Shown one piece after another: positions 26,823 through 36,636 of a stretch of DNA of 64,000 nt (positions within the stretch are counted from its first letter, which is position 1; each line of letters opens with the position of its first letter). Source of the stretch: Rhodococcus sp. 06-235-1A (GTDB lineage Bacteria > Actinomycetota > Actinomycetes > Mycobacteriales > Mycobacteriaceae); the NCBI RefSeq assembly GCF_002258785.1, contig NZ_NOYI01000033.1, positions 62,001 through 126,000 of the forward strand, given 5' to 3'. A model generated the notes under the pieces. That model was not told where the DNA came from and made no database searches. It worked only from the letters and a program-made list of their open reading frames with translations. A program made the position numbers and the translations under genes.

Positions 26823-27758
26823 CTACTGACCGCCGAACTCTGCGTACAGCTCCGGCAGAAAACCGGCGAGATGGTTCATCTCCTGCCCACAATGCAGCAT
26901 GAGATCTCGCGCGAGATCGAGCCCGAGTACGAGGTCGGTCGGGTCAACCGATGCTCCCCGGCGGACGGCGCACGTAGCCTGTTTCACGTCCGGTACGTGC
27001 AACCCGCGCAGGTTCAGGTGGAAGCGGCTACGCATCTCGGCACCGCCGTCGACGGGTCGCACCTGGTGGGCCAGCCAGCCCAGGTCCACCGGTGCGATGG
27101 AGCTGCCTACTCGGCCGAAGACGATCGTCTGGTCCGCGGGAACGTCGAACCCGTGCGCGATCGGATCGCGGAACCCGATGCCCAGTTGCTGCAGCTTCGG
27201 CCCGACGTATTCGTCCACGAACGTCGTGTTGCCGATGTACTTCGCCTTGTCGGGGATGTTCAGAGCCGTCCTGTACTCGGCGAGGGCGGCGTAGAGGTGA
27301 GCGTCGGGGTGCCACAGCTTGTAGCGGGCGGCCTCGGTGGAATGCCAGCCGAACCACCAGTCCCACATCGCCGCCGTCACTCGCGGCATCACGGTGCGTA
27401 CGGCCACGAACGCCACCCCATCGGCGCGCCGACCGTATCCGGTCTCGACCGTGGAGTATCCGGTGGGCGCGAGATCGGTTGTGATCGAGTCGAATCCGGG
27501 AACCGAATCGGGTGCGAGAGCAGGGCCGGCGTAGGCCTCTGCGACGACCGCCGGTGCGGGAGTGGTTCGCTGCGCCATGAACCGGGCATAGGGCAAGCCT
27601 CGGTCGGCATCCCGGTAGCCCTGGTAGCGCTCGCCGCAGTCGTCGACGGAACCCAACGTGGGTGCGGCCAGTGCCCTCGTGGCCGGGCCGAGGACGGCTG
27701 CCGTCACCGCCGCAGCTGCTCCCACGACCACCTGTCGCCGCGTCGGCACCCAGCTCAT
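26823..27758 (-). CDS. DAPG-hydrolase (PhlG) family protein with Tat signal
   Basis: A 311-residue protein of the diacetylphloroglucinol hydrolase fold. The WWFGWHSTEAARYKLWHPDA segment near residue 135 and NHLAGFLPELYAEF at the end are hallmarks; PhlG is a zinc enzyme cutting a C-C bond of an acyl phloroglucinol. The N-terminus has twin arginines (TRRQVV) and an AxA site (ALAAP), so export by Tat is predicted, unlike cytosolic PhlG. It is transcribed away from a TetR gene with a palindrome between them. The substrate is unknown; an aromatic acyl compound is inferred. Confidence 0.82.
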   Translation of the reverse strand: MSWVPTRRQVVVGAAAAVTAAVLGPATRALAAPTLGSVDDCGERYQGYRDADRGLPYARFMAQRTTPAPAVVAEAYAGPALAPDSVPGFDSITTDLAPTGYSTVETGYGRRADGVAFVAVRTVMPRVTAAMWDWWFGWHSTEAARYKLWHPDAHLYAALAEYRTALNIPDKAKYIGNTTFVDEYVGPKLQQLGIGFRDPIAHGFDVPADQTIVFGRVGSSIAPVDLGWLAHQVRPVDGGAEMRSRFHLNLRGLHVPDVKQATCAVRRGASVDPTDLVLGLDLARDLMLHCGQEMNHLAGFLPELYAEFGGQ

Positions 27759-28467: not shown

Positions 28468-29193
28468 TCAGCCCAACAGCGACTTACGCTCGGTATGAGT
28501 GAACGTGAAGATCGTTGCGCCGAAGCTGATCAATGCCGTGAGTAGCAGGACTTGCGGTCCGGTGATGACGACGCCGATGAATGCGCCGACCATCCCACCC
28601 AGTGCGAAAGACCCGAGAAGGGCTGTGTAGCAGAGCCAGTCGTAGTACGTTCCGCCGCCGAACAGATGTCTCTCGATGCCCTGGCCGAGTTTGACCATCG
28701 TGCCCGTGACGTAGCTGAGAGGGATGTAGGTCTCTTCCTTCTTCGTGAAGGCGGTGTTCAGCGCACCGAGTGCAAATGCCACCAACAGAATCGGATAGAA
28801 GTTGACGTTGGCGGACGACCATCCGGAGATGGCGATGTCGATCATTCCCGCTGCGGCGAGCGCGATGGTGGTCAGCACCGTCGCACCGTGCGGATGATTG
28901 GACCAGTAGCGACGACGGCAGATCGAGGAGACCACCACGCCGGCCAGGAACGACGCCATGAGCGCAAGAGCGGCCCACGGGGAGGCACCTGGGGCAACCT
29001 CCTTGCCCTCGGGGTGCCCGAAGTGTCCGACGACCGCCCGCTCGGTATTTCCGGTCATGAAGGTCACGAAGTAGCCGGCAGAGTGCAGGAACGCGACCGC
29101 ACCCACCATTCCGGCGAGCCCGGAAAGGATCCAGGACAAACGAGCTTCGGCACCGACGGCTGTTTCGCGGGTGATCGACAGAGGTGATGTCAT
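28468..29193 (-). CDS. DUF1275 (YoaK-like) membrane protein
   Basis: A 241-residue polytopic protein with about six spans and the family signature SAGYFVTFMTGNTERAVV near residue 40 and PLSYVTGTMVKLGQ near residue 150. DUF1275 proteins are uncharacterised and suspected to be transporters. It is on the same strand and 50 bp after the dioxygenase that ends the mys operon, so it could be the seventh gene of that operon and an export candidate; this is inference. The ATG at 29193 is used because the upstream frame runs into the preceding gene. Confidence 0.88.
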   Translation of the reverse strand: MTSPLSITRETAVGAEARLSWILSGLAGMVGAVAFLHSAGYFVTFMTGNTERAVVGHFGHPEGKEVAPGASPWAALALMASFLAGVVVSSICRRRYWSNHPHGATVLTTIALAAAGMIDIAISGWSSANVNFYPILLVAFALGALNTAFTKKEETYIPLSYVTGTMVKLGQGIERHLFGGGTYYDWLCYTALLGSFALGGMVGAFIGVVITGPQVLLLTALISFGATIFTFTHTERKSLLG

Positions 29194-29243
29194 GACTCGA
29201 TTCTCCGGGCGTGAGGCCGACCGGCAAATTTTTGAGTCGTCGG

Positions 29244-29996
29244 TCACAAAACCGACACGATCTCCATATTCGCGATCATTCCGCGGTGCATCACCCTGTT
29301 CCCCACCACGCCGCTGTGGTCGGCGCGATGCATCACACATCGGTTGTCCCACATCACCAGATCGTCGGGAGCCCACGTGTGCCGTAGAACGTTGTCCGAA
29401 CGGGTGGAGTGCTCGAACAGGTACCGGATCGTCTGCCGTGCGTCGTCGGGACTCATTCCGCTGATCGCGACGCAGCGCGCGGGTGCCGTCAGTGCGAGGG
29501 CAGTGCGGCCCGACACGGGATGTACTGCGAACAAGGGGTGTTCGGCGGAGGAATCGGTGTCCGACGCCACCCCGGTCACTCGGTGGGTCATCGTGCGTCC
29601 GGCCAGGTCCGCCTTCCGGTCCGCAGGCAAGGTCTCGTACGCCGCGTACTGATCGCTGAACAGCGTGCTGCCGCCGGCCTCGGGTACGCATACCGCGCGT
29701 AATGCGGTGTAGGTGGGCGGGTTCGGCACGTACGTCGTGTCCACGTGGAACGTCGACTTCGGCGGCGTCGTGCGGCCGACGTTGCTGACGACGTTCAGGT
29801 CGGGGTAACCCGGCACGGGGGTCTCGCCTTCGGTGAACATCATCTCACCGAACCGGCGGAGAAACGCCAGAAAGCGCATGTCGTCCACCGGTTGTTCCCG
29901 CAGGATCAATACGCCGTGTTCGGCCAGCAGCGTGCGTAGTTCGTCGATCGAGACCGAGTCCAGGTCCAGACCTCGAATCACCTTTCCCAGCGTCAC
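29244..29996 (-). CDS. TauD/TfdA family Fe(II)/2-oxoglutarate dioxygenase in the mys operon
   Basis: A 250-residue oxygenase. The iron triad is His 84 and Asp 86 (FHVDTTY) plus His 223 (WDNRCVMHRA), with Arg 234 or 238 for 2-oxoglutarate. PPTYTALRAVCVPEAGGSTLF is the usual TauD core. The GTG start overlaps the mysD stop (GTGA), so it is translated with the mycosporine genes. Cyanobacterial MysH, which trims mycosporine-like amino acids to palythines, is a phytanoyl-CoA-type dioxygenase from another branch, so this may be an independent tailoring enzyme. The reaction is unproven. Confidence 0.88.
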   Translation of the reverse strand: MTLGKVIRGLDLDSVSIDELRTLLAEHGVLILREQPVDDMRFLAFLRRFGEMMFTEGETPVPGYPDLNVVSNVGRTTPPKSTFHVDTTYVPNPPTYTALRAVCVPEAGGSTLFSDQYAAYETLPADRKADLAGRTMTHRVTGVASDTDSSAEHPLFAVHPVSGRTALALTAPARCVAISGMSPDDARQTIRYLFEHSTRSDNVLRHTWAPDDLVMWDNRCVMHRADHSGVVGNRVMHRGMIANMEIVSVL

Positions 29997-31015
29997 GAGG
30001 ACAACTCCTTCACCGATAGCTCTCGAAGCGATAGTGCGAACAGTCGATCGACGGAGATCCCGGCCGCCGCAGCCATCACCGCGACGACGCTCGAGGGGGA
30101 GTACGAGCAGTACAGGCCGGCCTCGAGAAACCATGGTCTGCCGTCGGGATCGATGCGAAAATCGAACAGACCGTAGTGCCGACAGCCGAGAGACCGGTAG
30201 CACAACCGCGCAGCCGCCCAGACCTCGTCGGTGATCGGATCGGAGACGTCCACCATCCACGCCTTGGTCTGTTCCTTCGCCACCAGGTACAGATCCCCGT
30301 CCGTGGTGCGGCTCAACTTGTCTGCACTCGACCGCACGGACTCGACGGCGTACTCCTCGAGCGGAAGGCAGATCAGCTCACCGCCCGACTCGATGATGCC
30401 GCAGCGGACCTCTCGTCCCAGGGGGATATACGACTCCACCAGTGCCGCAGCAGAATACGTCAGAGCCTCGCGGACCGCGGGTGCCAGCGCGCTGTCCTCA
30501 CGCACGAGGGTGACCCCCATCGAGTTGTCCGAGTCGACGGGCTTGACGACGACCGGTAGGCCGAGTCCGATCCGGTCGGCGCTTCGTACCACCTCACCGG
30601 CGGGGACGGCGACCCCGGCAGCGGCCACGACGGCACGCGCGCGAGCTTTGTCCGCCGTCATCGCCATCACGTCGGGACCGTTGCCCACGTACGGCACACC
30701 CAGGAGGTCGAACAGACTGCGATACGTCGTCATGCCGGGCAGGCAGAACATCTGCGGCACCATGACGTCGAAGTGCCACGAGGACATGACTTCGACCGCC
30801 TGCGCCAGTGACATCTGCTGTGCAGCAGCCACACTGGCGGAGTCGATACCGCCCGGAAAGCTCCACAGCCCGCCGGGAGAGACGAACGCCACCTCGAACC
30901 GGTACGCAGGATCGTCTCCGAACGCATCGAGAAAGCCGCCCGCGTACACCCGGGACAGATCGCAGTGGAACTCGTCCACCGAGGATCCGACGAGTACCAG
31001 GACCGACAGTGTCAT
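29993..31015 (-). CDS. mysD: D-Ala-D-Ala ligase-like mycosporine-like amino acid ligase
   Basis: A 340-residue ATP-grasp enzyme very close in pattern to cyanobacterial MysD: FHCDLSRVYAGG, PQMFCLPGMTTYR, VVKPVDSDNSMGV, LGREVRCGI and GCRHYGLFDFRIDPDG. MysD condenses a second amino acid (often Ser or Thr) onto mycosporine-glycine to give shinorine- or porphyra-334-type imines. The ATG overlaps the mysC stop. The amino acid used here cannot be read from sequence. Confidence 0.92.
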   Translation of the reverse strand: MTLSVLVLVGSSVDEFHCDLSRVYAGGFLDAFGDDPAYRFEVAFVSPGGLWSFPGGIDSASVAAAQQMSLAQAVEVMSSWHFDVMVPQMFCLPGMTTYRSLFDLLGVPYVGNGPDVMAMTADKARARAVVAAAGVAVPAGEVVRSADRIGLGLPVVVKPVDSDNSMGVTLVREDSALAPAVREALTYSAAALVESYIPLGREVRCGIIESGGELICLPLEEYAVESVRSSADKLSRTTDGDLYLVAKEQTKAWMVDVSDPITDEVWAAARLCYRSLGCRHYGLFDFRIDPDGRPWFLEAGLYCSYSPSSVVAVMAAAAGISVDRLFALSLRELSVKELSS

Positions 31016-32301
31016 CAGTCGCCTCCGCTCTCCACGAGTTTGCCGATGTTGAAGTCGATGCGAGACCACTCGCCGCGAGCCAGAAGGTTCCGGATCAGCA
31101 GGGACGGGATCTGGAGGTGGTGCACCAGAATGTACGGCAGCGGGTCCCACCCCGTCAGGATGGCGTCCTTGCCGCGGAAGATGCTGCGAAGGCGTGCCTT
31201 TCGGTTGCCCTCGGTGAGCAGACGCCACAGCTCGTGGTAGATCCAGTACGTCGGCCGAGCCGTCGGGCGCGGCACGATCATCGGATGGTCGTCGTCGAGG
31301 TACGCGGCAGCCAGATCGGGGTGGTCGTAGAACATCGTGATGGCCGAATGGGTGCGGGGGTTGCACTCGATGGCATAGATGTGGCCGTCGGCAGCGGACT
31401 CGATGAAGTCGAAGGACAGCTGGCCGGTGACGTCCAGCGAGGAGACGAAAGTCTGTACCCAGAGCAGGATTTCGGGCTTGTCCACCATCTCGTAGTTGAC
31501 CTGGAAGGCCGAGGACACGCAGCAGCCGTACACCTGTAGGCGGCCCTCACGCACCGTGCCGTGTGTGCAGTACTCCTGACCGGCGATGAATTCCTGCAGA
31601 ATCCACGGATCGTCCTCCGTGATGTGCAGACTCCGAGCGAACGAGGCGTTGCGCTGTGGCGTCTGCGCAGACAGTCGCGTCAGATCCATGCGGCCGACGG
31701 GGTTGTACGAGATTCGCTTGAGGATGTACTCGCGACCCGGTGGAAAGTCGAACTCGTCGATCTGAGCAGGATCGGTGATGCGCCGAAAGTCCGGAACGCG
31801 AAGCCCCAACGATGCTGCGTGTTCGGAGAATCGGGACTTGTCGTCGACCATCCGCACGCTACCTGCGTCGCCATGGATCACCTCGCAGTGCGGGTCGAGC
31901 ACGGTCCTGGCGTCCGCGTCGTGAATGCTTGCTGCCGGGCTGGCCACGGGGACGAACACATCGACGTTCTCGCGTCGAACGATGTCCAGCAGAGCCTGCG
32001 CGTATTCCGGGGCACCCGGATCGGGCACACAATGGAACCGATCGACAGCGCGGGAGAATCTGTGTCCCGAAAAGCGATACTTGGCCGACTCCACCAGGAT
32101 CACTCGATGCCCGGCGAGGTGGAAGGACCGAGCGAGCTGCAGTGCCTTGGTCATCTTGCCGCCGCTGATCAGAACCGTTCTGGGTGAATCGGATCGGCGT
32201 GTGGGCGGTCGGGTGCCGCGCATCGCGGCCACCCCTGCCGCCGCGAGGTCGACGGGCAGGGTGACCGCGAGGCCGAGCAGTGCGGCTACCGTGCGAATCA
32301 T
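31015..32301 (-). CDS. mysC: ATP-grasp mycosporine-glycine synthase
   Basis: A 428-residue protein matching MysC in several long blocks: a hydrophobic N-terminus, ISGGKMTKALQLARSFH, HRFSRAVDRFHCVP, WILQEFIAGQEYCTHGTV, ECNPRTHSAITMFY near residue 310, and the C-terminus RIDFNIGKLVESGGD. It activates 4-deoxygadusol by phosphorylation and adds glycine to give mycosporine-glycine. Its stop overlaps the mysD start (ATGA) and its start overlaps the mysB stop. The N-terminal hydrophobic helix suggests membrane association, as in other MysC proteins. Confidence 0.95.
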   Translation of the reverse strand: MIRTVAALLGLAVTLPVDLAAAGVAAMRGTRPPTRRSDSPRTVLISGGKMTKALQLARSFHLAGHRVILVESAKYRFSGHRFSRAVDRFHCVPDPGAPEYAQALLDIVRRENVDVFVPVASPAASIHDADARTVLDPHCEVIHGDAGSVRMVDDKSRFSEHAASLGLRVPDFRRITDPAQIDEFDFPPGREYILKRISYNPVGRMDLTRLSAQTPQRNASFARSLHITEDDPWILQEFIAGQEYCTHGTVREGRLQVYGCCVSSAFQVNYEMVDKPEILLWVQTFVSSLDVTGQLSFDFIESAADGHIYAIECNPRTHSAITMFYDHPDLAAAYLDDDHPMIVPRPTARPTYWIYHELWRLLTEGNRKARLRSIFRGKDAILTGWDPLPYILVHHLQIPSLLIRNLLARGEWSRIDFNIGKLVESGGD

Positions 32302-33098
32302 GTTCGACGGATCAGCGTCACGCCGTCGCGCAGAGGAAGCAGTACCTGCTCCACGCGGGGGTCGTTCGCCACGTAGTCGTTGAATTCGGCGACGGCCTTG
32401 CCGTTCTCGGTGGGCTGTTCGGAGTACGGCTGACCCTGCAGAAGGGTGTTGTCGACGGCGATCACGGCGCCGTCGGAGAGCAGATCGCTCTCGAGCAGAT
32501 ACTCCACGTACGCGCGGTATCCGGTCTTGTCGGCGTCGATGAACACCAGGTCGAACGTCCCGTCGAGCCGACCGAGGGTGTCGAGCGCGGGACCCACCTG
32601 CACCGTGATGGCAGATCCTGCAGTCGATTCTGCGAAGCAGGACTGCGCGAACTCGGCAACGTACGGATCGACCTCGCAGGCGACGACCTCGCCGCCTGCG
32701 GGCAGCGCCTCGGCCATCGCCAGCGCCGAGTAGCCGGTGAACATGCCGATCTCGAGCACCCGCGTCGCCCGGGTCATGTGCACGAGAAACGCCAGGAAAC
32801 GTCCCTCCACATGGCCGGAGAGCATTTCCATCTCCAGGGGCCCCGAGCCGGAGATCACGTCGCGTGACCTCCAGTCCTCGGAGCGGGTCCGCGACGCAAG
32901 TGTGGCCAGCGCGGCGGATTCGGAGGTGGTGCAGGTGTCCAGATACGGGTCGAGGCCCGCGGCGAGATCGCGGGCACGACGTATCCGAGTGGTCAGCTCG
33001 TCGGGCACCCCGGCATGGGCGTCGAGCAACTCGGCTATCTCGCCCAGCTCGCGCGCAAGGATTGTCGTCGGGGTCACCGGTCGCGGGGCCTCCGTCAC
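32298..33098 (-). CDS. mysB: O-methyltransferase forming 4-deoxygadusol
   Basis: A 266-residue class I SAM methyltransferase of the CCoAOMT-like fold: [20 protein letters not shown] (SAM motif I), [25 protein letters not shown] and [12 protein letters not shown]. In mycosporine clusters this enzyme methylates desmethyl-4-deoxygadusol. It overlaps mysA and mysC by four bases each. Function is assigned by family plus cluster position. Confidence 0.92.
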
Positions 33099-34306
33099 GA
33101 TGTCGGCGCGGTGAACATGTCGAGGCCCTCGCCTGCTCGTGGGAAGTCGAGGCAGATCTTCTTGTGCAGGGTCAGCACGTCACCCAGCTCGTCCGCATCG
33201 AGATCGTTGAGGAATCTGCAGGTACCGATCGGATCTGGTACCGCGGCGCGCAAGATCCCGTCGCGGGTCTTGAGGATCGATGCCGTTGCGTCGGAAAGCA
33301 ACTCGGGTGTCAGATAGGGGCTGTCGAGTGCCAACCCGATGCTGCTCATGACACCCAGTACGCGATCGCGGTCTGCAGTGGACAGGTGCCCGCGCTGCTC
33401 GGCGACCGTCGTGGACAGCGCCATGTCGATATTGATCGCGTGGCCGTGGAAGAACGGAGCGGGCGGAGTCAGCTCCAGGGTCGGGCTCCAGGTGTGTCCG
33501 AAGGCAATGACGCGATCGAGATCGATCTCGTGCAGGTTGGGGGCTTCGAGCTCGAGCATCGTGGCGATGGCCGAGTACGTCAATCGGTCTGCAACCGAAC
33601 GCAATTCCGCCGTGCCGTCGAGGTGACCGAAGCGGGTGCGCAGCAGTTCCGGCCCGTACTGCTCCAGCAACTCGAAGATCTCCAGATTTCCGACGACGGA
33701 GATCTTGATCAGCTCCGCCATACCGTTGCGCACCTGGTCTTCCGGCAGCGTGCCGAGGAACGAGAAGTCCAGCAATACCTTCTGCGAGGCGTGGTACGCA
33801 CCGAGACGGTTCTTGTGCTTGCCGTAGTTGACGGCCACCTTGATAGACACACTCGCGTCGATCAAGCCGATCAACGTGGTGGGAATGCGAATGTACGGGG
33901 TGTTGCGGCGGTAGCTGGCACACGCGAATCCCGCTACGTCCGTGGTCAATCCACCGCCCACCACCAACACCGGCTCGGTCCGCACGAGGCCGAATGCGTC
34001 GAACTCTCCCACGATGCGCTCGAATGTCTCCAGCGACTTCGCGGTCTCCGCTATCTGCACCGGAATCACCGTCAGGGCGATGTCGTGATGATCGAAGTAC
34101 GCGCGGATCCGGTCCCCGTAGATCTCGTGAACCGACTCGTCGACGACCATCAGCGCGCGTCCGTACTGACGGTAGCTGTCGGCCAGTTCGGTGTTCTCGA
34201 TCGCGAAGACACCGTCGACGTAGATCAGGTCGTATTCGATGCGCTCGTAACCCTCGACGCGAAATGACCTGTCCCCGGCAACGACCTGGGCCTGAAGATT
34301 GCTCAC
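33095..34306 (-). CDS. mysA: Desmethyl-4-deoxygadusol synthase (sedoheptulose 7-phosphate cyclase)
   Basis: A 403-residue sugar-phosphate cyclase of the dehydroquinate-synthase fold. NAD-binding [37 protein letters not shown], and metal-site segments [20 protein letters not shown] (His about 271) and [12 protein letters not shown] match the DDGS branch, not shikimate-pathway AroB. It converts sedoheptulose 7-phosphate to desmethyl-4-deoxygadusol. EEVS enzymes are close relatives; the mysB/mysC/mysD neighbours decide for DDGS. It starts 24 bp after the HAD-like gene and overlaps mysB. Confidence 0.93.
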
Positions 34307-34330
34307 TATTACTCCTGGGTGGATGAAGGG

Positions 34331-34996
34331 TCAGGCTGAAATCAGAGCGCGTACACGCTCGGGATCGAGTGCATCGACGGTGTCGGTGGCCGAGCCGAAG
34401 TCGGCGTCGGCGGTGTTCTCGTTGGGGAATGCGACGCAGGTGATGCCTGCGGCGACGGCCGCCTCGACTCCGCCGGCATTGTCCTCGATGGCGACACTGT
34501 CGGATGCGTTCTCGCCCAACGTCTTCAACGCGAAATTGTAGGATGCGGGATCGGGCTTGCCTGCGTCCACCGAGGACGCGTCGACGATGACGTCGAACGA
34601 ATCGGCGGTCAGCTCCGGGCTCAGGGCCGCCAGCAGTGCGTCGATGTTGTCGCGCGACGTGGTGGTCACGAAGCCGACCTTGACGCCGTTCGCCTTGGCG
34701 GAATCGATCGTATCGGCAACGCCGGGACGCGTTTTCACGTCCGATTCGCCGACCAGACGCTGGAATATCTCGGACTTCGTTGCATGCACCGCGGCAGCAT
34801 CGACCTCGGTACCCGTGTCGGCCGCGTACTCGCTGATGCGGTCGGCACCACCGTTCGACCCGAGCATCGCCCGGTAGTCGTCCCGAGACCAGTTCCAGTT
34901 CAGATCGTGGGCTGCGAAGGCCTCGTTGAACGAGCGGCGTTGCAGTTCGGACGTGTCGACGAGCGTGCTGATCGAGCCGAACAGAATTGCGGACAT
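34331..34996 (-). CDS. HAD-superfamily protein lacking the catalytic aspartates
   Basis: A 221-residue protein of the beta-phosphoglucomutase-like HAD subgroup. The cap region and later motifs survive (VTTTSRDN, motif II; DAGKPDPASY with Lys, motif III; AIEDNAGG, motif IV), but motif I reads FGSISTLVDT at residues 6-15 where F-D-x-D-G-T is expected: the nucleophile and acid Asp are Gly 7 and Ile 9. It is therefore unlikely to be a normal phosphatase. It is first in the mys operon, 24 bp before mysA. A regulatory, binding or chaperone role in sedoheptulose 7-phosphate supply is conceivable but unproven. Confidence 0.85.
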   Translation of the reverse strand: MSAILFGSISTLVDTSELQRRSFNEAFAAHDLNWNWSRDDYRAMLGSNGGADRISEYAADTGTEVDAAAVHATKSEIFQRLVGESDVKTRPGVADTIDSAKANGVKVGFVTTTSRDNIDALLAALSPELTADSFDVIVDASSVDAGKPDPASYNFALKTLGENASDSVAIEDNAGGVEAAVAAGITCVAFPNENTADADFGSATDTVDALDPERVRALISA

Positions 34997-35112: not shown

Positions 35113-36636
35113 CTAGGGTGTGGCGGACTGTCGGCCGGGGTGGACGGGCGCGGCCAGAGTTGTCGGTGCGGATCGTCCGCGCAGCGTCACGGACTCACCT
35201 GTTTGCCAGTGCTTTCTCTCGTCCGCTGTTGCGTGATCGAGCACGACCGACGACGTGAGCACATCGGTGTTCGGGTCGTCCTTGGCGAGATCGGTGAGCC
35301 GGGCCGCTTGATTCACGGTGTCGCCGATGACGGTGTACTCGAAGCGGGACTCGGCTCCGATGTTGCCTGCGATGACCGGCCCGTACGTCACGCCGATGCC
35401 GATCTCGAAGCCGCCGTCGGACGCGAGGGCAACGGCCAGGGTGCGTGCGGTGCGCAGTGCCGCCGTGGCGGGATCGGGGTGATCGACCGGAGCGCCGAAG
35501 ATCAGCAATGCGGCATCACCCTCGAACTTGTTGACGAAGCCGCCGTGTCGTTCGCCGTGCTCGACCACCACTGCGAAGAACCGATTGAGAAGTTCGACCA
35601 CCGCCTCCGCGGATTCTCGCTCGGCCATGGCCGTCGAACCCACCAGGTCGATGAACAGCACGGCGACCGTCCGGCTCTCGCCGCCGAGACGCGGAGCACT
35701 TGCCAATGCCCGCTGCGCCACGTCGTGGCCCACGTGCCTGCCGAACAGAGAACGCAGTCGCTCGCGTTCGTCGAGACCGACCACCATCTTGTTGAACCCG
35801 TTCTGCAACCGGCCGATCTCGGAAGCGTCGTAGACGTCGACCCGGGTGTCCGTCGCCCCGGCTTCGACGCGTTGCATCGCGCTACTGACCTGCTGCAGCG
35901 GGTCCGAGACGGAGCGTCCCACCAGAAACATGCCGCCGAATCCGACGACAAGGGCAACGGCGGAGAGCGACACCATCGCGGGGGACAGATCGACATCGGG
36001 AGGGATGACGGTGTCGATCAACCTGCCGAGTCCGATGAGTCCCAGCCCGAGAACGGGAATCGCTGTGCTCAGGACCCAGATGAGAACGACGCGAAGTCGA
36101 ACACCGAGAGCTGCGGAATCGGTGACCGCACCGACCTCCATCACCGCGGCTGTGATCGGGCGAAGAGTGCGTTCGGCCACCAGGTAACCCAGCGAGCACG
36201 TCGCCAAGCCGCCGAAGCTGACGGCGATCGCGACGATGATCGACAGCGCAGCGCCGGCCGACGCATTGACCGAGACGAACACCGCGACGCCGAGCGCCCA
36301 CAGCAGAACGTGGACGCCGAGTTGGCGCAGAGGCAATCGGACGACGGCGATGGCGGTCTCGTCCGACGGCGTGCCTCCGGTGTGCAGCCACCGAACCAGG
36401 GGTGCTGCGACGCGGAGTCCGAGCCCGATGCCGATGGCGATCGCGACCGGGAGATACACGAAGAACGCCAGGTAATTTCGGTCGGACAAGATCTCTTCGG
36501 AACCGACCGGCAGCGGCAGGACGAAGCGTGCCAATACGAACACGATGACGGCCCCGATGGCGTTGGCCGACACCATTCCCACCGCGTACAGACGCATGGG
36601 TGTGCGGTCGAGGGCAGATCGCAGGGCGGCGATCAC
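35113..36636 (-). CDS. Class III adenylate cyclase with 6TM and HAMP domains
   Basis: A 507-residue membrane cyclase. About six N-terminal spans (residues 10-230) precede a HAMP segment (VGRSVSDPLQQVSSAMQRVEAG) and a C-terminal cyclase domain with both metal Asp regions (VLFIDLVGSTA and KFEGDAALLIFG) and the YTVIGDTVNQAARL loop. The Lys in KFEGD and the later Asp favour ATP as substrate. This layout matches the mycobacterial Rv1318c/Rv1319c/Rv3645 group. The GTG at 36636 follows GGAGAAC; the next ATG is 13 codons in and lacks a ribosome site. A longer open frame upstream runs antisense through the AurF-like gene and is not real. Confidence 0.9.
   Translation of the reverse strand: MIAALRSALDRTPMRLYAVGMVSANAIGAVIVFVLARFVLPLPVGSEEILSDRNYLAFFVYLPVAIAIGIGLGLRVAAPLVRWLHTGGTPSDETAIAVVRLPLRQLGVHVLLWALGVAVFVSVNASAGAALSIIVAIAVSFGGLATCSLGYLVAERTLRPITAAVMEVGAVTDSAALGVRLRVVLIWVLSTAIPVLGLGLIGLGRLIDTVIPPDVDLSPAMVSLSAVALVVGFGGMFLVGRSVSDPLQQVSSAMQRVEAGATDTRVDVYDASEIGRLQNGFNKMVVGLDERERLRSLFGRHVGHDVAQRALASAPRLGGESRTVAVLFIDLVGSTAMAERESAEAVVELLNRFFAVVVEHGERHGGFVNKFEGDAALLIFGAPVDHPDPATAALRTARTLAVALASDGGFEIGIGVTYGPVIAGNIGAESRFEYTVIGDTVNQAARLTDLAKDDPNTDVLTSSVVLDHATADERKHWQTGESVTLRGRSAPTTLAAPVHPGRQSATP

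What the first reader, a model, noticed from the sequence alone, without database searches (positions are those of the whole stretch)
28468..34996. Six- or seven-gene mycosporine-like amino acid operon in a Rhodococcus-type genome
Seen: mysA, mysB, mysC, mysD and a dioxygenase overlap each other by four bases, with a HAD-fold gene 24 bp upstream and a DUF1275 membrane gene 50 bp downstream. Known: MysA-D make 4-deoxygadusol, mycosporine-glycine and disubstituted sunscreens, mostly in cyanobacteria, with a few actinobacterial cases. Inference: the host makes a UV-absorbing compound whose final structure may be new, because the flanking HAD, dioxygenase and DUF1275 are not standard cyanobacterial parts.
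Basis: partly seen in the sequence, partly recalled or inferred. Interest (0 to 1): 0.85.

Follow-up and report, generated by a model that had tools for sequence, protein, structure and literature searches.

The report
Sunscreen operon with catalytically dead HAD
A Rhodococcus carries a six-gene operon for a natural UV sunscreen; operons of this kind are already in print, but one of its genes, a supposed phosphatase, has lost its catalytic residues in every relative examined and seems to be kept as a helper, most likely of the neighbouring oxygenase.

Summary
Observation confirmed with small corrections. The minus strand carries HAD-mysA-mysB-mysC-mysD-tauD (34996-29244), a mycosporine-like amino acid (MAA) operon. 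MysA is of the DDGS type; the MysD loop pair is L-A, the published shinorine pattern. The operon is in 31 of 37 same-genus genomes. DUF1275 is only a flanking gene: it is not beside 18 of the 31 clusters and stays in place in a genome without the operon. [quoted passage not shown] fascians operon. What I did not find in print: the HAD is a pseudoenzyme. Both motif-I aspartates are gone in 77 of 77 aligned relatives, while the CbbY (xylulose-bisphosphate phosphatase) fold is kept. In 114 MAA clusters a HAD gene accompanies TauD in 95 of 95 (broken in two); HAD lacks TauD in 6. The HAD-tauD pair also occurs in a few cyanobacteria, which the preprint says lack it. Best reading: shinorine to palythine-type MAA, with a non-phosphatase HAD helping the dioxygenase; a role in the core pathway is the main rival.

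The parts
34331..34996 (-). pseudo-HAD: CbbY-type HAD-like protein with motif I GSIST in place of DxDGT
   Evidence: Pfam PF00702/PF13419; nearest PDB CbbY 4uat E 3.6e-39; AF2 model pLDDT 95.3, Z 30.2 to 4uau; both motif-I Asp absent in 77 of 77 aligned relatives
33095..34306 (-). mysA, sedoheptulose-7-phosphate cyclase of the DDGS type (GTG start)
   Evidence: 5tpr E 4.5e-168 over residues 1-399
32298..33098 (-). mysB, O-methyltransferase (GTG start)
   Evidence: PF01596 1.1e-46; 4 bp overlap with mysA
31015..32301 (-). mysC, ATP-grasp-like ligase (mycosporine-glycine synthase by synteny and homology)
   Evidence: NF005315 412.5 bits, cut-off 406; syntenic in relatives
29993..31015 (-). mysD, D-Ala-D-Ala-ligase-type ligase; omega-loop pair L-A, predicted to add serine (shinorine)
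   Evidence: PF07478 1.8e-18; loop DLYLVAKEQTKAWM in the window protein; rule from PMC11983340, pattern read on relatives
29244..29996 (-). tauD, Fe(II)/2-oxoglutarate dioxygenase of the TauD/TfdA family (GTG start)
   Evidence: PF02668 8.6e-55; H84-x-D86, H223 and R234 in 250-aa numbering (one less) conserved in every aligned row that has a residue there (72 of 72 or 73 of 73)
28468..29193 (-). DUF1275 membrane gene: flanking, not part of the unit
   Evidence: adjacent in 13 of 31 genus clusters; stays in place in a genome without the operon; copies elsewhere in the genus

Best explanation
The operon makes a palythine-type mycosporine-like amino acid. MysA turns sedoheptulose 7-phosphate into desmethyl-4-deoxygadusol, MysB methylates it, MysC adds glycine (mycosporine-glycine) and MysD adds serine (shinorine). 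The TauD-family oxygenase then hydroxylates the glycine arm, which falls off and leaves an amine (palythine-serine, palythine). The HAD protein is no phosphatase: it descends from a CbbY-type sugar-bisphosphate phosphatase, has lost both motif-I aspartates and two further residues that are fixed in the CbbY-type controls, keeps the CbbY fold and several conserved cap residues, and acts as a non-hydrolytic helper (activator, stabiliser or ligand-binding subunit), most likely of the TauD step. Shown here: gene content, order, conservation, residue states, co-occurrence. Inferred: all chemistry and the helper role. My estimates: MAA operon 0.97; shinorine as MysD product 0.85; TauD as the palythine-forming step 0.7; HAD without phosphatase activity 0.9; HAD helping TauD in particular 0.42 (lowered from 0.45 after the recount, which showed a second genus cluster with a damaged tauD beside an intact HAD). 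DUF1275 is a neighbour.
For: MysA to 5tpr. MysD pair L-A under the published rule; the same reading gives M-S, F-S, Y-S and A-S in cyanobacteria, patterns named in that paper. TauD metal and 2-oxoglutarate residues conserved. PMC11888242 cites unpublished expression of the R. fascians D188 operon giving shinorine, palythine and palythine-serine. HAD: G7 for the nucleophile Asp and I/L9 for the second Asp in 77 of 77, S16 for Glu and Q19 for His in 77 of 77, against Asp, Asp, Glu, His in 6 of 6 CbbY-type controls. All 16 further HADs (two of them duplicates of named loci) read GS(I/L)S. Best fold match CbbY, Z 30.2 against 24.5 for the next family. dN/dS 0.059-0.081 in 4 comparisons, below MysB, MysC, MysD and TauD in each. 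Co-occurrence: a HAD gene in 95 of 95 TauD-bearing clusters; in 15 cyanobacterial genomes all 5 with TauD have the pseudo-HAD and the 8 without pseudo-HAD have no TauD (Fisher p 0.007); the pair standing away from the mys genes in L151 and L152; both absent from the 4-gene clusters L177 and L178.
Against: HAD is kept without TauD in 6 of 101 HAD-bearing clusters: L058, L087, L101, L136, L145, L174. L101 and L145 may be cut by contig ends; no TauD was found in the genomes of L087, L136 and L145 at E 1e-15; the genomes of L058 and L174 were not searched beyond the locus. In two more (L133 = L024, and L033) tauD is damaged and HAD intact. The reverse also occurs: HAD is frameshifted in L079 and has an in-frame stop in L134 beside a full-length TauD, unless these are sequencing errors. 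In 63 of the 66 named clusters with both genes HAD sits next to mysA, in 3 next to tauD. The TauD tree does not mirror the HAD tree: cyanobacterial TauDs group together (100/100) but beside Williamsia sterculiae at a midpoint root (93/91), and the TauD of L152 is inside that group while its HAD is outside the main HAD group. The flanking DUF1275 has a dN/dS as low as HAD (0.028-0.078). Relatives are not independent samples. MysH, another oxygenase, makes palythines apparently without a HAD (passages, and recall). MysI could not be compared. No biochemistry was done.
Confidence: 0.7

Rival explanations
1. The pseudo-HAD serves the core pathway, for example by binding sedoheptulose 7-phosphate or another sugar phosphate for MysA, and its link with TauD is indirect.
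For: HAD lies directly upstream of mysA in 63 of 66 named clusters with both genes; it persists without TauD in L058, L087 and L174 and intact beside a damaged tauD in L024/L133 and L033; of the six operon genes its dN/dS is the lowest after MysA; cap residues R53, H71 (76 of 77) and K74 shared with the CbbY-type controls are kept; CbbY acts on sugar bisphosphates (entry titles).
Against: MAA clusters without TauD mostly lack HAD: 13 of 19, among them two 4-gene actinobacterial ones (L177, L178), though several of the 11 cyanobacterial ones lie on short contigs and two of those genomes hold the pair elsewhere. The HAD-tauD pair stands apart from mysA in L151 and L152.
Confidence: 0.32
2. The pseudo-HAD is an enzyme with new chemistry, for example a lyase that breaks the hydroxyglycine arm made by TauD into amine and glyoxylate, as the lyase half of peptidylglycine alpha-amidating monooxygenase does (comparison recalled).
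For: A HAD gene accompanies every TauD seen; 77 of 77 identity at G7, S16, Q19, R20, R53, K74, T111, K147 and E171 speaks for a defined site and not for decay.
Against: PMC10510106 proposes spontaneous breakdown of the hydroxylated arm for MysI (passage). HAD persists without TauD in some genomes. I know of no HAD fold with such a lyase activity (recall).
Confidence: 0.12
3. The HAD is an ordinary active phosphatase of the pathway and DUF1275 an exporter in the same operon.
For: HAD family hit; 50 bp spacing and same strand for DUF1275; DUF1275 under purifying selection.
Against: Nucleophile and second Asp absent in 77 of 77. DUF1275 is adjacent in only 13 of 31 genus clusters and stays in place in a genome without the operon.
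Confidence: 0.03

Closest known systems
Actinobacterial MAA clusters with HAD and TauD (GATOR-GC preprint PMC11888242; Pseudonocardia alni window and the R. fascians D188 operon)
   Same: Same six gene families; R. fascians is a close relative of the window (mysA 96% identical to R. fascians NBRC 12155); products cited there are shinorine, palythine and palythine-serine.
   Different: The text I saw (section 36 and passages) treats the HAD as an enzyme of unvalidated role, does not mention lost catalytic residues, and states that HAD and TauD were not present in Cyanobacteriota. Its figures and supplements were not seen.
Four-gene mysABCD cluster of Actinosynnema mirum (Miyamoto 2014, not held; L177 has exactly the genome length I recall for A. 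mirum, so the name is recalled)
   Same: mysABCD order and homology.
   Different: No HAD and no TauD within the 15 kb read.
Cyanobacterial MysI (TauD/TfdA, mysFIE cluster, PMC10510106) and MysH (PhyH)
   Same: Oxygenases proposed to turn a glycine arm into an amine (palythine-type).
   Different: MysI is described with mysF and mysE, and no HAD is named in the passages seen; MysH is of another family.
CbbY xylulose-1,5-bisphosphate phosphatase (4uar/4uat)
   Same: Fold over the whole chain, Z 30; residues W36, Y41, G49, G50, R53, K74, R90, K147 and E171 shared by all 83 aligned rows, H71 by 82.
   Different: D, D, E and H of the CbbY-type controls are G, I/L, S and Q in 77 of 77 pseudo-HADs.

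Membership tests
MAA biosynthetic operon (mysABCD) | DDGS-type cyclase, O-methyltransferase, ATP-grasp ligase and D-Ala-D-Ala-ligase-type MysD adjacent in this order | tested here: met
MAA biosynthetic operon (mysABCD) | UV-absorbing cyclohexenone or cyclohexenimine product | not testable with these tools
   needs LC-MS; a close relative's operon is reported to give products (unpublished work cited in PMC11888242)
DDGS rather than EEVS or AroB | closest to A. variabilis DDGS (5tpr; its identity as DDGS is recalled) and not to the EEVS ValA (4p53, named so in PMC4426668) | tested here: met
   E 4.5e-168 against 6.2e-80. The 14 fingerprint residues mentioned in PMC4426668 were not checked one by one.
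Shinorine-type MysD | omega-loop pair L-A or L-S | tested here: met
   L-A in the window protein, pattern as, rule; positions placed by spacing and the conserved Trp, not by alignment to Np.MysD
TauD/TfdA Fe(II)/2-oxoglutarate dioxygenase | H-x-D, distal H and Arg for 2-oxoglutarate (motif recalled) | tested here: met
   (73 rows, those under 180 aa left out)
MysI | sequence relation to MysI of Nostoc sp. UHCC 0926 | not tested
   sequence not found in the collections (one search listed 40 of 435 records)
Active HAD phosphatase (CbbY type) | motif I DxD nucleophile and acid/base | tested here: not met
   G and I/L in 77 of 77 against D and D in 6 of 6 controls
Active HAD phosphatase (CbbY type) | CbbY fold and cap | tested here: met

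The most novel reading that the evidence does not exclude
A HAD phosphatase was turned into a dedicated, catalytically dead partner without which a TauD-type dioxygenase of sunscreen biosynthesis does not work, and the two genes travel together as a module between actinobacteria and cyanobacteria.
Probability: 0.37. Interest if true: 0.68.

Novelty: new variant of a known kind. Interest (0 to 1): 0.5.

Why it matters
The preprint that found HAD and TauD in these clusters left the HAD's role open and says it warrants study. The lost catalytic residues turn that question round: phosphatase assays would probably find nothing, and one should look for binding or partner effects. The co-occurrence pattern gives a direct test (TauD, and the core pathway, with and without HAD), and bears on how palythine-type sunscreens can be made in engineered hosts: a TauD expressed alone may fail.

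Tried and rejected
Rejected: DUF1275 as an operon member. HAD as an active phosphatase. HAD as a decaying pseudogene (dN/dS 0.06-0.08). MysA as EEVS or AroB.

Led nowhere: MysI could not be retrieved (plasmid searches; a TauD scan of 386 cyanobacterial genomes at E 1e-40 found only the centre genome). Promoter/terminator scan: no promoter-like site, and one terminator-like site where shuffles give 3.0. Search for CbbY papers: listing only, nothing read. A search for a HAD pseudoenzyme in MAA work gave only the GATOR-GC preprint as relevant (listing). Miyamoto 2014 is not held.

'Not found in print' rests on the listings, and on section 36 plus passages of PMC11888242; supplements and figures were not seen. 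PMC10510106, PMC11983340, PMC4426668 and PMC9789016 were seen as passages only.

Rows dropped: L079 (HAD frameshift) and L134 (HAD with an in-frame stop) were left out of the HAD alignments, tree and residue counts. The same calls left out most of the genus loci L005-L036 as duplicates or near-duplicates. TauD rows under 180 aa were left out (L099, and L033 with the genus loci). 24 close rows were thinned for the MysA tree. L188 and L189 were left out there as duplicates of L114 and L113. L154 was scored from its annotation and from the plasmid searches.
Full report
What is there. The minus strand of the window carries HAD, mysA, mysB, mysC, mysD and tauD with no gap larger than 24 bp, then DUF1275 after 50 bp. 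mysC and mysD overlap by one base, not four. Pfam and NCBIfam support the families. MysA matches 5tpr with E 4.5e-168 and the EEVS 4p53 with E 6.2e-80.

How common it is. MysA orthologues (E below 1e-150; split over two contigs in G011) are in 31 of 37 genomes of the same genus. A HAD gene is in 31 of 31. tauD is intact in 29 of 31; in L024 (201-codon frame without HxD) and L033 (163 codons, without HxD) it is damaged while HAD is full length. In a scan of genome contigs 167 relatives of MysA were found and the best 80 kept: Rhodococcus/Rhodococcoides, Williamsia, Mycobacterium/Mycolicibacterium, Aeromicrobium, Nocardioides, Marmoricola, Kineosporia, Pseudonocardia, others, and cyanobacteria. 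In 396 genomes drawn over the phylum 5 have a MysA at E 1e-80 or better; 9 have a HAD match at E 1e-30 or better, among them all 5. Two of the other four (G168, G306) have the pseudo-HAD with mysBCD-tauD and a divergent cyclase; the last two (G152, G200) are intact CbbY types without mys genes nearby.

DUF1275 is a neighbour. It adjoins the cluster in 13 of 31 genus genomes, all of the window's close clade, and in none of the other 18, one of which has a copy about 10 kb away. It occurs in 30 of 37 genus genomes, often elsewhere. In G018, which lacks the operon, the pirin-like, DAPG-hydrolase-like, TetR and DUF1275 genes are followed directly by the AurF-like gene; the missing block lies between about window 29280 and 36631 and holds the operon and the cyclase gene upstream of HAD.

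The HAD is a pseudoenzyme. Motif I reads GSIST in the window and an Asp-free variant (GS(I/L)(S/G)(T/S/A), GAIGT) in relatives. In an alignment of 77 pseudo-HADs and 6 intact CbbY-type HADs, position 7 (the nucleophile) is G in 77 and D in 6; position 9 is I (76) or L (1) and D in 6; position 16 is S in 77 and E in 6; position 19 is Q in 77 and H in 6. R53, K74, R90, K147 and E171 are the same in all 83; D172 is kept in 76 of 77. The 16 HADs (two are duplicates of named loci) also lack both Asp. The AF2 model (pLDDT 95.3) matches CbbY at Z 30.2, rmsd 2.0 over 220 residues, against 24.5 for the next family. NG86 dN/dS in four comparisons: HAD 0.059-0.081, MysA 0.030-0.038, MysB 0.111-0.162, MysC 0.098-0.146, MysD 0.103-0.174, TauD 0.150-0.217; the flanking DUF1275 is also low, 0.028-0.078. 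In a tree 76 pseudo-HAD rows form one group (99/97) and the 6 intact types another (100/96); the places of L152 and of the Roseobacter protein are unsure (99/61). Some cyanobacteria hold an intact type beside the pseudo-HAD (G454, G458).

HAD and TauD. Of the 80 named loci 66 have both, 4 HAD only, 10 neither, none TauD only. With added loci, 114 clusters: actinobacterial 98 (both 91, HAD only 4, TauD only 1, neither 2), cyanobacterial 16 (both 3, HAD only 2, neither 11). The one TauD-only case, L036, begins inside mysA, and its HAD is on another contig. So TauD comes with a HAD gene in 95 of 95. Damaged genes are counted as present: HAD in L079 and L134, TauD in L133 and L033; TauD of L099 is cut by the contig end. 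HAD-only: L058, L087, L101 and L145 (contig ends), L136, L174.

Cyanobacteria. HAD and tauD adjoin in the MAA clusters of Chamaesiphon polymorphus CCALA 037 (L124), Phormidesmis priestleyi BC1401 (L132) and an uncultured cyanobacterium (L134). In the genomes of L138 and L139, whose MAA loci lack them, the pair stands elsewhere (L152, L151). The MysA proteins of these loci fall with the HAD-less cyanobacteria (93/95), so the contigs are unlikely to be stray actinobacterial DNA, while the HADs (L152 apart) group with some actinobacterial ones (87/91). This would fit transfer of a HAD-tauD module into native cyanobacterial clusters, but the TauD tree does not show the same neighbours: its cyanobacterial group (100/100) joins Williamsia sterculiae at a midpoint root (93/91), and it contains L152, whose HAD lies outside. 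Joint transfer is therefore possible and not shown. PMC11888242 states that HAD and TauD were not present in Cyanobacteriota. They are rare there: in 386 genomes only the centre genome had a strong HAD match (58% identity; five others 32-39%) and only it a TauD match at E 1e-40.

Product. The MysD loop pair is L-A in the window and in 50 of the 76 named MysDs; 14 were not read by the pattern, though several of these show L-A by eye; 12, all cyanobacterial, read M-S (5), F-S (4), Y-S, M-A and A-S. PMC11983340 ties L-A and L-S to shinorine and F-S, F-A, Y-S, A-S and M-S to porphyra-334 (passages). TauD keeps its metal and 2-oxoglutarate residues. The preprint cites unpublished expression of the R. 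fascians D188 operon in S. coelicolor with shinorine, palythine and palythine-serine. PMC10510106 describes a TauD-type MysI in cyanobacterial MAA clusters. So the product is likely known; the role of the HAD is not.

Reading. TauD always with a HAD gene, HAD sometimes without TauD: at gene level TauD seems to depend on HAD more than the reverse. I favour a helper of the TauD step (0.42), with a core-pathway role (0.32) as the main rival. Both odds moved slightly, and the novel case from 0.40 to 0.37, when the recount showed a second intact HAD beside a damaged tauD and set the two broken HADs against strict dependence. The pattern is correlational, and relatives are not independent.

Noticed in passing
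L088, L092, L115 (Mycobacterium gordonae and relatives), L190: MAA clusters HAD-mysA-mysC-mysD-tauD without mysB: about 85-110 bp between the mysA and mysC matches in the three checked; the best MysB-like hits elsewhere in these 4 genomes are 30-39% identical. The product may lack the O-methyl group, or another methyltransferase serves.
   Followed up: partly
L060, L061: Clusters with HAD, mysBCD and tauD whose cyclase is only 38% identical to MysA and sits on a very long branch: possibly another sugar phosphate cyclase feeding a MAA-like pathway.
   Followed up: partly
L153 8992-9663: Roseobacter litoralis plasmid pROLI81: a HAD with an Asp-free motif I (GSIGT) directly after trkA-trkH and no annotated MAA genes in the 18.6 kb shown: the pseudo-HAD family is wider than MAA.
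   Followed up: partly
L152 6613-7380 and L173: One Chamaesiphon genome (G464) has two pseudo-HADs with GAIGT, one beside tauD and one without a match to the mys or tauD queries nearby.
   Followed up: partly
L037-L042, L064: A second cyclase 41-43% identical to MysA in 6 of 37 same-genus genomes and in G273, away from the MAA operon, perhaps an EEVS.
   Followed up: no
26823-27758: Protein with a Tat-like N-terminus and a DAPG (diacetylphloroglucinol) hydrolase domain, PF18089 6.9e-60, beside a TetR gene.
   Followed up: no
35113-36600: Adenylate/guanylate-cyclase-like gene (named from its sequence, not scanned) upstream of HAD on the same strand; absent or only weakly matched in 3 of the 11 close-clade loci L005-L015, and missing together with the operon at the same place in G018.
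   Followed up: partly
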